A DNA stretch of 64,000 bases from Alternaria dauci (lineage: Eukaryota; Ascomycota; Dothideomycetes; Pleosporales; Pleosporaceae): the NCBI RefSeq assembly GCF_042100115.1, contig NC_091272.1, forward strand, positions 3,348,001 to 3,412,000, written 5' to 3'. The stretch's first letter is position 1, and each line of letters starts with the position of its first letter. Made by a program: the position numbers and the translations under genes. A model generated the notes under the pieces. It was not told where the DNA came from and searched no databases. It saw nothing but the letters and a program-made list of their open reading frames with translations. Below are positions 17,850 through 23,291 of the stretch, in pieces.

Positions 17850-18453
17850 ATGGCGGCGCAAAGAGGAGCAAACGTTGTCGAAAAGAAGAAGAGGTCGAAG
17901 AAGAGAAGAACGAGGACCGAAGGTGCGACACGTGTATCGACTAGATGGCGAAGCATGCGCTAACGATTGAGCAGTCTCATCATCGAGCGAAAGTGACAGC
18001 GATGTCTCGAGCCCAAGGAGCCAAAAAGTGGCTGCGGTAGAAGAAGAGGCCAAGGTACCATAGTCGCGTCGAAAAGAGTTCGTCTGAGCTGACTTGAAAA
18101 AGGAGACTTCACCAGCACCAACACCCGCCAAGAAAGAGAAGAAGAAGAGGAAGTCTCAGGCTGGTAGTGCACCGGAGGCGCAGCCAGATGAGGATGTTGC
18201 AATGACAGATGCGCCAGCTCCTGCGCCACAACCAAAAGCAGCGTCAAAAGCCAGCAAGCAGGCCCAAGAGGACTTTAGCGCTATCTACCTGCGCAAAGTC
18301 GCAGCCGAGTTCGCCGATGATCTCGACAAAGTGCGTGAAGCGCAAGATTTCAAGGCGAGTAGCGTGCCGATGCTTATCCATGCGCTCAAGCAAGGCGAAA
18401 GTCTGTTCAGTGTAGAAGAGCGAAGAAGGGTCGCTGGAGCTGCAAACGCGTAG
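17850..18453 (+). CDS. RSA3: Ribosome assembly protein 3 (Rsa3 domain)
   Basis: Three exons, 17850-17922, 17975-18054 and 18103-18453, encode 167 residues. The N-terminus is very basic (VEKKKRSKKRRTRTE), followed by Ser/Asp and Pro/Ala stretches with KKEKKKRKS, typical of nucleolar assembly factors. The C-terminal ~60 residues form the Rsa3 domain (AIYLRKVAAEFADDLDKVRE, then SSVPMLIHALKQG). Yeast Rsa3 acts in 60S pre-ribosome maturation. The last intron has a weak acceptor (AAAAAG) but keeps the frame. The next gene, the inverted 5' half of SKI3, converges on it with only 156 bp between stops. Confidence 0.85.
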
Positions 18454-18609
18454 AGAACGAGGCAAGCATGGGCGGCGTTTGGTGTTTAAGTTTTGGTATT
18501 GATTCTTAAGATTATCTTAATGGAAATATGTGTAACCATGCAGAGGCACCTAGGTCCGGTCCCGTTCATGCACCAAAACGCCTTGCTATGCCGAATCTCG
18601 TGAAGACAC

Positions 18610-19522
18610 CTAGTACGCCTCAACTTCCATGCCGCTCCGCCATTCCAACTCGATTGTCCAAGCCAGTAGATTCGGATGCTTGATAACAACCATATCGTGT
18701 GCCAGCTTCATGACCTTCTCTCTCTTGGCTGCTTTCTCTCCTGATGGCAACACCATCAAGGTATCGTACGCCCTAGCCAGCAGCTTCTCCTCGTATTCGC
18801 GCCTCAGCTCATCGTCTCTTGTCCAGTTGATGATTTCCTCGTAGATTTCCTCTAGCGGGCTAGCAGCATATATCTCGTTCTTCACAGAGGAGGTGGTGCC
18901 TTCCAGTGTCGCGCCGATGCGGAGTCGCCTCTCTTCTATGAGCCGCTTGATTGCTGCAGCTTCTTGTGTCTCGTGGATCTCGGCGATGCGCGTGTAGGTT
19001 TTGGACGGGTCCGGCAGGCGGCCTTCAAGGTACGAGTAGACGGGTGAGGATGGTAGTTGTGTACTAAGCGCACGTGCATACTGAGTCTTGGTGCCATGTG
19101 CGCGGGCATGGTCTACGAGCTTATCAATGGCGGATTGAGACTTGTACGCATCGTCGCTAACCTGGTTAGTATTTCATCTTTATCTGCAGTGTCTGTAGCG
19201 CATACAGGTTCATGTAGATTTGCGCCAGCTCCAGGCCAACGTCAATGTTCTCATCAACCTTCGCGCCCTTGAGGCCCTCGTACATGCCCCTCAGCCCTAG
19301 CCATGCCTGCGGATCGTCGGGCTTGATCTTGGTCGCATTGTAATAGGCCTTCGCTGCTTCATCAAACTTGCTCAAGCCATCGTTGGCGCGTCCAAGGAAC
19401 AGATACGCAAAGTAGTTCTGGGCATCTTTCTCTAGTACAGCCTCCGCCTGGTTCTTTGCTTCCTCCCAATCCTTTGCGCCAATAGCAGCCTTTGCGGCCC
19501 TGAGAGCGGTCTTCGTAGACAT
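18610..19522 (-). CDS. SKI3: SKI3 amino-terminal part, separated and inverted
   Basis: Two minus-strand exons, 19522-19206 and 19156-18610, give 287 residues. The intron (19157-19205) has a GTATGC donor, a TACTAAC branch and a GGTTAG acceptor. The N-terminus MSTKTALRAAKAAIGAKDWE, followed by TPR helices (NYFAYLFLGRANDGLSKFDE, AWLGLRGMYEG), is the start of fungal Ski3. The body matches the Ski3 region with YLEGRLPDPSKTYTRIAEI, INWTRDDELRREYEEKLL and VVIKHPNLLAWTIELEW. There it stops, seven residues after ELEW, although in fungal Ski3 the chain continues for more than 1,000 residues. The continuation is found head to head at 19860-23291 on the other strand. Ski3 is the TPR scaffold of the cytosolic Ski2-Ski3-Ski8 complex that feeds mRNA to the exosome. 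Either a genuinely split gene or a local assembly inversion would give this picture. Confidence 0.85.
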
Positions 19523-19859
19523 GGCGATGGTTCAAGTAACGATGGTAGGAATCAGGCCGTCCGTACGGCGTTGTTCGTGCTATGAAAGAGCCATGAGGAG
19601 TGCATTGAACTGTGGAAGCTTTGGTGGGGCTTGCAGCGTCCAAAGACCAAGCAATGACGCACGGCATGCTAGCGCCGATCCTGGGGTCCAGCCTTACCAA
19701 AAGACAAACAACAACCTCGACCTTCTGCAACTCACCTGCCACGATTTTTCGCCGCTTACTCTTCCGGACGCTCTTAGTAGTTCATTCCAGTTCCTTTCTT
19801 TGCAGCATCTATCGGCGTTCTACGTTCCATTGGCTGGGTAAAATATTCGGGTTGTTGTC
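19523..19859. promoter_or_regulatory. Head-to-head spacer between the two SKI3 halves
   Basis: 337 bp between the start codons of the minus-strand N-terminal half and the plus-strand C-terminal half. If a single inversion produced the arrangement, most of this is the original SKI3 promoter and 5' UTR, now serving both directions. The right part (about 19735-19830) is pyrimidine-rich on the plus strand, as in core promoters elsewhere in the window. No specific site is assigned. Confidence 0.45.
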
Positions 19860-22800
19860 ATGGCGTCACACGCGGACAGTGCGCACGACCTGCTGGATCT
19901 CGACATATCGACATTGCGGCAATTCCTTGAGCTATTCCCCAATGAAGGCCTATCAAAAGTTATCACTGGCTGGCTGAGCAGTGGCATATCAAAATACCCG
20001 CTTACGGAAGAGGGCGACTCAAGAGAAGGACCTGACCTTAGTGAAGGAGGGGTAGCTCTTACCCAAGATGTGCCCGTATCACAAGAGGACTGCTTGGTGT
20101 TGATGACGGAAGGGCTTGGGGAGGCTGCGAGGTCACCACTGGCGCATTGCTTGCTCGGAGACTACTACCTGTTCTTGGAAGAGTACGAAAGCGCAGTCGA
20201 AACGACAAGAAAAGGCCTCAAGTACGCGGTTGCCGAGGCGAAGAAAACCGACTTGTCCTTCCAAAAGACGCGCGATGCTTTGAGCAGCACACTTGCTACT
20301 GCCCTGGTCTATTACCAGGCTCCAAGAAACCATCTGGAGGCCAAAGGCATCTTCGAATCCATCTTGAAGCGCAAGCCACAGTTCACTTCTGCCCTCATCG
20401 GCATCGGACTGGTCTTGGAAGAAGAAGAGGAATACGAGCAAGCTTTCCAATTCCTTGAAAAGGCGCTGCAGCAAGATCCCTCAAACGGCCGCATAGGTGC
20501 AGAATCAGCCTGGTGTCAAGCACTTGCAGGCGACTACAAGACTGGATTAGAAAGACTCCAAGGATATCTCGACTATCCGCAGCTCGATGCCTCCAAGCAA
20601 AGAGGCCGTGAGCTCCGCGCGCAGACACTTTATAGGATAGGTGTCTGTTTATGGGAGCTCGACCCATCAAAGGCTGCGAGGAAGGACCGCCAAAGAACGT
20701 ACGCGAAGCTACTTGCGGCGATCAAAGCAAACTCAAATTATGCTCCAGCGTACACTCTGCTCGGCATTTTCTACGAAGACTACAACAAGGACCGCAAAAG
20801 AGCACGACAGTGCTTTCAGAAGGCTTTTGAGTTATCGCCCTCTGAGGTTGTTGCAGCAGAGCGCTTAGCACGCCTTTTCGCCAATCAAGGCGAGTGGGAC
20901 ATCGTTGAGGTTGTCTCCCAGCGAGTAGTGGACTCTGGTAAAGCGCGCCAGACGCCAGGCTCAAAAAGAAAAGGCGTTAGCTGGCCTTTCTCCGCACTGG
21001 GTGTCGTGCAGATGAACAAGCAAGAGTACCAAAAGAGCATCGTGTCGTTCTTATCCGCGCTACGCATCAGCCCGGATGACTACTACTCCTATGTCGGCCT
21101 CGGTGAGAGCTATCATAACTCCGGACGATACAACTCAGCATCACGCGCGTTCAATTACGCAGAAAACCCCACAGATGGTGTTGTGTTGAAGAGGTCAGAT
21201 GAAGAGGGATGGTTTACAAAGTACATGCTTGCCAATGTCAATCGCGAGTTGAGTGAGTTCGACGAAGCCCTCGCGGGGTACGAAGCAGTACTAGCCTCTC
21301 GACCGAAAGAAGTCGGCGTCTCAATAGCACTCCTACAGACGCTTGTAGAGAAGGGTTGGCATTGCGTTGAGACGGGCTTTTTCGGAGAGGCTGCCAACAG
21401 CGCCACCCGGGGTATCGAGGTTGCGCTGACGATAACCGAGTACAAACCGGATGCTTTCAACCTTTGGAAAGCTGTCGGTGATGCATGCAGTTTGTTCACC
21501 TGGGTCCAGGAAAAGCTCAAGCAATTCCCTGTGGAGTTGGTCGAGAAGGTGCTGCGCAGCAAGTCGGACATGAAGATCGATTTTGACGAGCACAAGGACA
21601 TCGATGGGCTCGGTCAGGATGCTTTAGCTGCACTTTCCACAGACGAACACACTATCCTCGCAAAGGTGCTCAAAGCCGCGATACTTGCACAAAAGCGAGC
21701 AATATCTAGTTGTGCGCATGACATACACGCACAAGCTGTGGCGTGGTACAACCTAGGATGGACTGAGTACAGAGCGCACGTCTGCTTAGAGCAGGAAGGC
21801 ATTGAAGGTTTCAAATTAACGACATACCTCCGAGCAGCTATGAGATGTTTCAAACGCGCTATCGAACTCGAGGCCGGCAATTCTGAGTTCTGGAACTCGC
21901 TTGGTGTCATTACAACGACATTGAACCCTAAGGTCGCGCAACATGCTTTTGTTCGCTCCTTGCATCTGAACGAACGCAGTGTGCACACTTGGACGAACCT
22001 TGGAGCGCTTTACCTGCTACAAAATGATCACGAGCTTGCGCACACCGCCTTTTCACGAGCGCAATCACAAGATCCCGACTATTCGTTGGCCTGGGTGGGC
22101 GAAGGTATCATTGCATTGCTTACCGGAGACTCCAACGAGGCGCTTTCCCATTTCACCCACGCATTCGAGCTCTCAGAGTCATCATTGCTCTTGACCAAGC
22201 GCCAATATGCCGTCTCGGCTTTCGACTTCCTTGTTTCTTCGCCTTCGTCATCTAGCAACATCACGAACCTCATACAACCTCTGTTCGCGCTCCAACAGCT
22301 CAATATACAGGTACCTTACGACATTTCGCACAAGCACCTCGCGGCACTATTCCTAGAGCGGGTCGGCGACTACGATGCAGCAGTAACTGCTCTTCAAGCC
22401 GTAAACGAGACCGTCGAGCAAGAATACGAGAAGTCAGAGTCGCTGACATCACTGGCCCGTGTTGCACAAGCCAAGACAGACCTGTCTCGAAATCTCCTCG
22501 CCATCGGATCTTATGGTTCAGCTGTGGAAGAAGCTGAGACGGCATTGGATCTGCTCTCGGAGGTAGAAAGCGATGCAGACCAGTCTGTGTTGTCCAAGGA
22601 TCATATCATAAAGAGTAAGCTATCAGCTCGTCTTACAGCTGGTCTAGCACACTACTTCAGCGGCTCCTTTGATGCCGCCATACCCTATTTCCGAACGTCG
22701 CTCGAGGCAACCGGAGCCAACCCAGACATCATTTGCATCCTCGCCGAAGTGCTCTGGGCCAAGGGTGGAGAGACCGAGAAGCAAGTGGCCCGCGACCAAC

Positions 22801-23291
22801 TCTTTGCCGCTATAGAGAAGCACGAAGGCCATGTCGGCTTGTTGACACTCATCGGTGCCATGACAGTGCTTGATGATGACTTGGAAACCATGGAAGCCAT
22901 CAAAGACGATCTGGACCGACTTCGCACGAACAAGGAGCTCAGTGACGAGCAGCTTGCACGGGTGGAGAAGGTTGTTGAAGCCATCTCAGTTAGTTTGGGT
23001 GGCGAGGAACAAGAACTGGACGAGGCTCGACGCAGTGTCATGCTTGCGCCTTGGAAGCACACTGGTTGGAGTGAGCTTGCTGACGCTGCTGGAGGTGACG
23101 TTTTTGCCAGTACACTTGCAAAGGAAACTGCGATGCGCAACGCACCGCCGAACGGTACTTTGAGTGCTGTTGGCTTGGCGGGTGCTATGGGAAGTACTGG
23201 CGATGTACGAGATGCTCAGAGGGCAATTATGCTAGCACCCTGGTGCACAGATGGCTGGAGTGCCTTGGCCGAGTGTGTTCAAAGTGCTTGA
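19860..23291 (+). CDS. SKI3: SKI3 carboxy-terminal part (TPR scaffold of the Ski complex)
   Basis: Intronless, 1,143 residues, built of tetratricopeptide repeats (for example ALIGIGLVLEEEEEYEQAFQ, SYVGLGESYHNSGRYNSASR and NLGALYLLQNDHELAHTAF). After a short non-conserved leader (MASHADSAHDLLD) it enters the Ski3 family sequence in mid-protein at LDISTLRQFLELFPNEGLSK. This is the segment that should directly follow the end of the minus-strand gene at 18610. The C-terminus (LAPWKHTGWSEL, LAPWCTDGWSALAE) is that of Ski3. Together the two halves add up to about 1,430 residues, the size of an intact fungal Ski3. No frameshift or internal stop is present, so the half is under coding constraint or was split recently. 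The start codon is the first Met after the presumed breakpoint. Confidence 0.88.
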   Translation: MASHADSAHDLLDLDISTLRQFLELFPNEGLSKVITGWLSSGISKYPLTEEGDSREGPDLSEGGVALTQDVPVSQEDCLVLMTEGLGEAARSPLAHCLLGDYYLFLEEYESAVETTRKGLKYAVAEAKKTDLSFQKTRDALSSTLATALVYYQAPRNHLEAKGIFESILKRKPQFTSALIGIGLVLEEEEEYEQAFQFLEKALQQDPSNGRIGAESAWCQALAGDYKTGLERLQGYLDYPQLDASKQRGRELRAQTLYRIGVCLWELDPSKAARKDRQRTYAKLLAAIKANSNYAPAYTLLGIFYEDYNKDRKRARQCFQKAFELSPSEVVAAERLARLFANQGEWDIVEVVSQRVVDSGKARQTPGSKRKGVSWPFSALGVVQMNKQEYQKSIVSFLSALRISPDDYYSYVGLGESYHNSGRYNSASRAFNYAENPTDGVVLKRSDEEGWFTKYMLANVNRELSEFDEALAGYEAVLASRPKEVGVSIALLQTLVEKGWHCVETGFFGEAANSATRGIEVALTITEYKPDAFNLWKAVGDACSLFTWVQEKLKQFPVELVEKVLRSKSDMKIDFDEHKDIDGLGQDALAALSTDEHTILAKVLKAAILAQKRAISSCAHDIHAQAVAWYNLGWTEYRAHVCLEQEGIEGFKLTTYLRAAMRCFKRAIELEAGNSEFWNSLGVITTTLNPKVAQHAFVRSLHLNERSVHTWTNLGALYLLQNDHELAHTAFSRAQSQDPDYSLAWVGEGIIALLTGDSNEALSHFTHAFELSESSLLLTKRQYAVSAFDFLVSSPSSSSNITNLIQPLFALQQLNIQVPYDISHKHLAALFLERVGDYDAAVTALQAVNETVEQEYEKSESLTSLARVAQAKTDLSRNLLAIGSYGSAVEEAETALDLLSEVESDADQSVLSKDHIIKSKLSARLTAGLAHYFSGSFDAAIPYFRTSLEATGANPDIICILAEVLWAKGGETEKQVARDQLFAAIEKHEGHVGLLTLIGAMTVLDDDLETMEAIKDDLDRLRTNKELSDEQLARVEKVVEAISVSLGGEEQELDEARRSVMLAPWKHTGWSELADAAGGDVFASTLAKETAMRNAPPNGTLSAVGLAGAMGSTGDVRDAQRAIMLAPWCTDGWSALAECVQSA

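What the first reader, a model, noticed from the sequence alone, without database searches (positions are those of the whole stretch)
18454..23291. SKI3 split into two divergent genes by a small internal inversion
Seen in sequence: the minus-strand gene at 18610-19522 is the first ~287 residues of a fungal Ski3, ending just after the conserved AWTIELEW. The plus-strand gene at 19860-23291 begins with a 13-residue leader and then LDISTLRQFLELFPNEG, the piece that should follow directly. The two lengths add to a normal Ski3 (~1,430 residues). The simplest history is one ~1.3-kb inversion carrying the promoter and 5' end of SKI3, with breakpoints between 18454-18610 (just after the RSA3 stop) and about 19840-19900. 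Neither half has a stop or frameshift, and both now start with a usable ATG and end with a stop. If real, the Ski complex scaffold would be made of two separately encoded chains that must associate in trans, an arrangement I am not aware of for Ski3.
Basis: partly seen in the sequence, partly recalled or inferred. Interest (0 to 1): 0.93.

Follow-up and report, generated by a model that had tools for sequence, protein, structure and literature searches.

The report
Fungal SKI3 gene split by inversion
In this fungal genome assembly the single gene for Ski3, the scaffold of an RNA-decay machine, is cut into two neighbouring genes that point away from each other, most simply by a small DNA inversion; whether the two pieces work together is not yet known.

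Summary
Minus-strand 19522-18610 encodes, with one predicted 49-nt intron, 287 residues that align to yeast Ski3 9-297. Plus-strand 19860-23291 encodes 1,143 residues that align to yeast Ski3 407-1435 strongly and 299-346 weakly but in order. Read together they tile Ski3. The 34.9-Mb, 10-contig genome showed no second copy of either half; TPR_22, found in the N-half, matched once. A Ski2 gene is present. The simplest history is one inversion of about 1.28 kb (roughly 18616-19898) carrying the 5' end and upstream region of SKI3. It leaves 337 bp between two divergent start codons, a possible shared promoter. The cut falls in a predicted loop between helices and, by rough mapping, in or near the N-terminal arm that is flexible in human SKI3. 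I think the C-half keeps the scaffold and the N-half may dock in trans. Expression, association and age are untested. No reads or related fungi could be searched, so an assembly error or a recent, damaging inversion is not excluded. Gene fission into complementary chains is known elsewhere; the few literature searches that were answered showed no report for Ski3.

The parts
18094..18453 (+).
   Evidence: ORF list and sequence; the RSA3 name was not tested here
18613..18640 (.). left breakpoint interval; 18615/18616 if no residue was lost
   Evidence: end of Ski3 homology in the N-half; W + 8 residues equals the yeast spacing W295 to M304
18610..19156 (-). SKI3 N-half, exon 2 (stop codon 18610-18612)
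   Evidence: holds TPR_22
19157..19205 (-). 49-nt intron, GTATGC...TACTAACCAGGTTAG
   Evidence: predicted from sequence, no RNA data
19206..19522 (-). SKI3 N-half, exon 1, start ATG at 19522
19523..19859 (.). 337-bp region between the two start codons; proposed shared bidirectional promoter
   Evidence: sequence; the previous plus-strand ATG starts 194 nt before the C-half ATG; no TATAA box on either strand; promoter function is inferred only
19880..19899 (.). right breakpoint interval; 19898/19899 if no residue was lost
   Evidence: start of Ski3 homology in the C-half
19860..23291 (+). SKI3 C-half, single 1143-aa ORF with a leader of 8-13 residues that may not be Ski3
18616..19898 (.). inferred inverted segment, about 1283 bp
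   Evidence: deduced from the two breakpoints; single copy in the genome

Best explanation
An inversion of about 1.28 kb, with one break in an interhelical loop of the SKI3 coding sequence and the other just beyond the stop of the upstream gene, turned the SKI3 5' end and its upstream region around. Each part kept or gained a start and a stop. The old upstream region now lies between the two start codons and could drive both, so one event could make two co-expressed genes. The C-chain (equivalent of yeast 299-1435) is inferred to bind Ski2 and Ski8 as the scaffold. The N-chain (N-terminal TPR arm) is inferred to dock on the exposed end of the C-chain solenoid or to work loosely with it. Shown: two complementary, open halves, each found once in the assembly, and a Ski2 gene. 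Inferred: the inversion history, shared promoter, expression and association in trans.
For: The halves abut on yeast Ski3, 9-297 and then 299 onward, the first 48 residues of the second weakly. Neither half has a second place in the genome. Both frames are open over 287 and 1143 codons, with positive codon-use scores of 0.39, 0.27 and 0.16 bits per codon for N exon 1, N exon 2 and C (six window ORFs as training, no noncoding control scored). In single-sequence models of low confidence (mean pLDDT 45.6 and 45.2) the last N-half helix ends near residue 280, and in the C-half a short helix at 8-11 is followed by the helix 16-25, so the cut is between helices. A gene with Ski2_N is present. In human SKI3 the N-arm, TPR 1-8, had no ordered density, while TPR 9-40 wrap SKI2N and, with two SKI8, form the gatekeeping module (PMC8860381, passages); the SKI7 and 40S contacts are at TPR 29-30 and 39-40 (PMC11540850, passages). 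Inversions are frequent in Dothideomycetes (PMC3516569, passages), if this is one.
Against: No reads, RNA or relatives. In simulations an in-frame ATG within 13 codons arises in 12%, a stop within 2 codons in 7%, and no ATG over the stretch before the C-half start in 9%, so the new ends are no strong sign of selection. Simple repeats are over-represented within 500 bp of recent inversion breakpoints in PMC3516569; Tandem Repeats Finder gave 0 rows here, and the longest exact inverted match near the breaks is 7 nt. [quoted passage not shown] Yeast ski3 deletion mutants grow with subtle defects (PMC10089162, passages), so a broken SKI3 could be carried. Ski8 was not securely found (E 4.3e-4, 4 stops inside).
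Confidence: 0.5

Rival explanations
1. The inversion is real but recent or strain-specific and has damaged SKI3: the C-half alone is made, or neither, and the N-half is a pseudogene not yet decayed.
For: No age estimate exists. Yeast ski3 deletion mutants grow with subtle defects (PMC10089162, passages). The new start and stop could be chance. The N-arm is disordered in the human complex (PMC8860381, passages).
Against: Neither half has a stop or frameshift, the predicted intron keeps GT-AG ends and a branch-like CTAAC, and TPR_22 scores far over its cut-off. None of this excludes a young event.
Confidence: 0.28
2. Assembly artefact: a local inversion made by the assembler or by chimeric reads.
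For: No reads could be examined, and the whole claim rests on one assembly. Imperfect inverted repeats exist in the neighbourhood: 20 nt at 80% (18479-18498 with 19695-19714), 14 nt at 86% (18708-18721 with 20022-20035), 11 nt at 91% (18681-18691 with 19850-19860).
Against: The region is single copy with no leftover duplicate. None of those inverted repeats lies at both breaks; they are about 40 to 200 nt off, short and imperfect, and within 18451-18700 against 19821-19960 the longest exact match is 7 nt. Both new ends give usable starts and stops. The contig is 7.05 Mb.
Confidence: 0.15
3. The two pre-mRNAs are joined by trans-splicing into one full-length Ski3 message.
For: Of 104 donor-acceptor pairs scanned around the break, 2 give a full open product; one keeps the conserved end of the N-half, the other deletes it.
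Against: The donor (GTACTA) and the acceptor (GCGGACAG, no pyrimidine tract) look weak, and 2 of 104 needs no special cause. Trans-splicing of opposite-strand nuclear transcripts is rare (recalled: mod(mdg4) of Drosophila).
Confidence: 0.02

Closest known systems
Ski3 / TTC37 (yeast 4buj, human 7qdr)
   Same: Homology along the protein when the two halves are read in order; single copy; a gene with Ski2_N in the genome
   Different: One continuous chain there, two divergent genes here
Split mitochondrial cox2 (cox2a/cox2b) of Campsomeris; similar splits in chlorophycean algae and alveolates (PMC5374615, abstract and outline)
   Same: One ancestral gene became two genes for complementary polypeptides that apparently pair; found in the wasp while sequencing segmental inversions
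   Different: Mitochondrial, the parts separated by a 3-kb cluster of ORFs; by its abstract and section headings both parts are transcribed and translated there, which is not shown here
Gene fission in fungal genomes (PMC2557144, passages)
   Same: Inversion is named as a way to split genes; the paper notes that one product must come under a new promoter
   Different: Here the upstream region itself would lie between both parts after the inversion, which could meet that need in one step (inference)
Mesosynteny inversions of Dothideomycetes (PMC3516569, passages)
   Same: Intra-chromosomal inversion
   Different: This one is about 1.3 kb, cuts a gene, and Tandem Repeats Finder shows no repeat array in 17900-20500; whether the source is a Dothideomycete was not tested

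Membership tests
Ski3/TTC37 | Sequence homology to Ski3 along the length, N to C | tested here: met
   N-half to yeast 9-297, C-half to 407-1435 strongly and 299-346 weakly; met by the two genes together, by neither alone
Ski3/TTC37 | TPR_22 domain (PF18833) in the N-terminal part | tested here: met
   101.5 bits against cut-off 27.2; one place in the genome. That TPR_22 marks Ski3 is recalled, not from a call
Ski3/TTC37 | One continuous polypeptide | tested here: not met
   Opposite strands, own start and stop each
Ski3/TTC37 | Partner Ski2 with its N-terminal Ski2_N region in the genome | tested here: met
   PF17911 140.5 bits at C1:221947-222381, in a 957-aa ORF followed by a 223-aa ORF; the full gene structure was not worked out
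Ski3/TTC37 | Ski8 partner in the genome | tested here: inconclusive
Ski3/TTC37 | Assembly with Ski2 and two Ski8 | not testable with these tools
   Needs protein work
Gene fission into complementary subunits (cox2a/cox2b kind) | Two single-copy genes whose products tile one ancestral protein | tested here: met
Gene fission into complementary subunits (cox2a/cox2b kind) | Both products expressed and associated | not testable with these tools
   No RNA or protein data
Assembly-error inversion | Good inverted repeats or duplicated remnants at both breaks | tested here: not met
   reads not available

The most novel reading that the evidence does not exclude
One inversion created an obligate two-chain Ski3. 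Because it carried the old upstream region to a place between both parts, it gave them a shared bidirectional promoter at once and so overcame the usual promoter barrier to gene fission. The arm and the scaffold of Ski3 are now separately made chains that join in trans, fixed in a lineage.
Probability: 0.38. Interest if true: 0.8.

Novelty: new variant of a known kind. Interest (0 to 1): 0.6.

Why it matters
If real and fixed, it would be a nuclear example of an inversion turning one scaffold gene into two complementary genes in one step, and a natural test of whether the N-terminal arm of Ski3 must be covalently joined to the rest. In the human structures of PMC8860381 that arm is disordered, so its role is open.

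Tried and rejected
Viral contigs, C-half only: 18 stretches matched a pattern, 0 relatives. Prokaryote genome contigs, C-half only: 22 stretches, 0 relatives. So there is no comparison with any fungus beyond yeast.

Organism: the one 5.8S match reported (39 of 1043 candidates scored) lies in a TA-rich stretch that I judge by eye to be a mutated relic; its RIP index was not computed because the file was absent. An exact 19-base 5.8S pattern found 0 places. An AltA1 family search gave 2 matches, the one compared being nearer to PevD1 than to Alt a 1. The organism stays unidentified.

Structure: single-sequence models of N-half exon 2 and of the first 400 residues of the C-half have mean pLDDT 45.6 and 45.2; used for helix limits only, no fold search made. 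Trans-splicing: 2 of 104 pairs open; kept only as a 2% rival. Duplication from staggered breaks: no inverted repeat at both breaks. Ski8: weak match only.

Papers: searches failed except, which is no paper call and lies outside these. Answered searches: Ski3, 2021-2024; 20 of 96 listed; Ski3 with Alternaria; 0 papers; gene-fission terms; 15 of 31 listed. Two look-ups, for papers I take to be on yeast Ski structure, were answered as not held.

Full report
What is there. The window shows two open genes on opposite strands with 337 bp between their start codons. The minus-strand gene runs from ATG at 19522 to stop at 18610. A scan for splice pairs left one that keeps the frame open, a 49-nt intron with GTATGC donor, TACTAAC branch-like box and TTAG end; the product has 287 residues. 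The plus-strand gene is one ORF of 1143 codons, 19860-23291.

Identity. The 287-residue product matches yeast Ski3 from 9 to 297 (E 1.4e-20) and human SKI3 at the N terminus (E 2e-11), and has the TPR_22 domain. The 1143-residue product matches yeast Ski3 from 407 to 1435 (E 4e-103 for the whole), with a weak but collinear stretch 299-346 at its start; its residues 57-70 and yeast 347-406 are not aligned. In yeast, eight residues lie between W295 and M304; in the N-half, eight residues lie between the same W and its last residue, Y, and the C-half has LDIST where MDAPL should follow. If nothing was lost, the breaks are at 18615/18616 and 19898/19899, and the N-half runs one codon beyond the break before its stop. 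An alternative reading, in which the C-half residues HDLLD are native, as the alignments suggest, moves the right break to about 19883 and the left one to about 18633.

Copy number. In the genome held (34,901,638 bases, 10 contigs; the window is at C1:3348001-3412000) the C-half has 1 match, the N-half its two exons only, TPR_22 one place and the break region one place. No intact SKI3 was found. A Ski2_N domain is at C1:221947, in a 957-aa ORF followed at a distance by a 223-aa ORF. A yeast Ski8 query gave one weak match.

History. One inversion explains the opposite strands, the complementary ends, the single copy and the position of the break just past the upstream gene. Short imperfect inverted repeats occur in the neighbourhood (20 nt at 80%, 14 nt at 86%, 11 nt at 91%), but none sits at both breaks; the longest exact inverted match near the breaks is 7 nt. 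Tandem Repeats Finder gave 0 rows in 17900-20500. Breaks without good repeats do not favour an assembler mistake, but they also lack the simple repeats reported near recent Dothideomycete inversion breakpoints (PMC3516569, passages).

Were the new ends selected? In 20,000 simulations each, from the dinucleotide make-up of the spacer, an in-frame ATG within 13 codons before any stop occurs in 12%, a stop within two codons in 7%, and no ATG over the stretch before the C-half start in 9%. These tests were chosen after seeing the sequence. Together they lean towards a shaped locus but prove nothing. Codon-use scores are positive in both halves (without a noncoding control); a young break would look the same.

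How it would work. Human SKI3 has a flexible N-terminal arm, TPR 1-8, without ordered density, and TPR 9-40 that wrap SKI2N and, with two SKI8, form the gatekeeping module (PMC8860381, passages). SKI7 binds at TPR 29-30 and the 40S at TPR 39-40 in human; the SKI7 site is not conserved in budding yeast and most of the last turn is an extension over yeast (PMC11540850 and PMC8860381, passages). The cut here is in or near the end of the N-arm by rough mapping (inference; I did not align the cut to the human chain). Models of low confidence put it between helices. So the C-half probably keeps the scaffold, and the N-half could stack on it or work apart. The note that fission is harder than fusion because one product needs a new promoter (PMC2557144, passages) makes the geometry interesting: the inversion leaves the old upstream region between both starts. 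That it drives both genes is my inference; the spacer has no TATAA box on either strand.

What is not known. Reads, RNA and relatives were out of reach. The assembly error (0.15) and the recent damaging inversion (0.28) stay open; yeast without SKI3 grows with subtle defects (PMC10089162, passages). The closest known kind is the split cox2 (PMC5374615, abstract and outline), where both parts are transcribed and translated by its section headings. I saw no report of a split Ski3, which listed 20 of 96, 0 and 15 of 31 papers.

Noticed in passing
L009 (G000:C7:2723602-2726755): The one 5.8S rRNA match reported (39 of 1043 candidates scored) lies in a very TA-rich stretch that looks like a heavily mutated rDNA relic; an exact 19-base 5.8S pattern finds no place in the assembly.
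   Followed up: partly
L012 (G000:C4:936318-936671) and L013 (G000:C2:1603405-1603761): Two AltA1-family matches; the first is nearer to PevD1 than to Alt a 1 in the PDB, the second has 2 TAA codons inside the six-frame match, perhaps an intron.
   Followed up: partly
18454-18609: Only 156 bp separate the stop of the upstream plus-strand gene from the stop of the N-half, so their 3' ends may overlap as antisense.
   Followed up: no
19515-19526 and 19854-19865: A 12-base direct repeat (83% identity) covers both start-codon regions (D17); probably chance.
   Followed up: no
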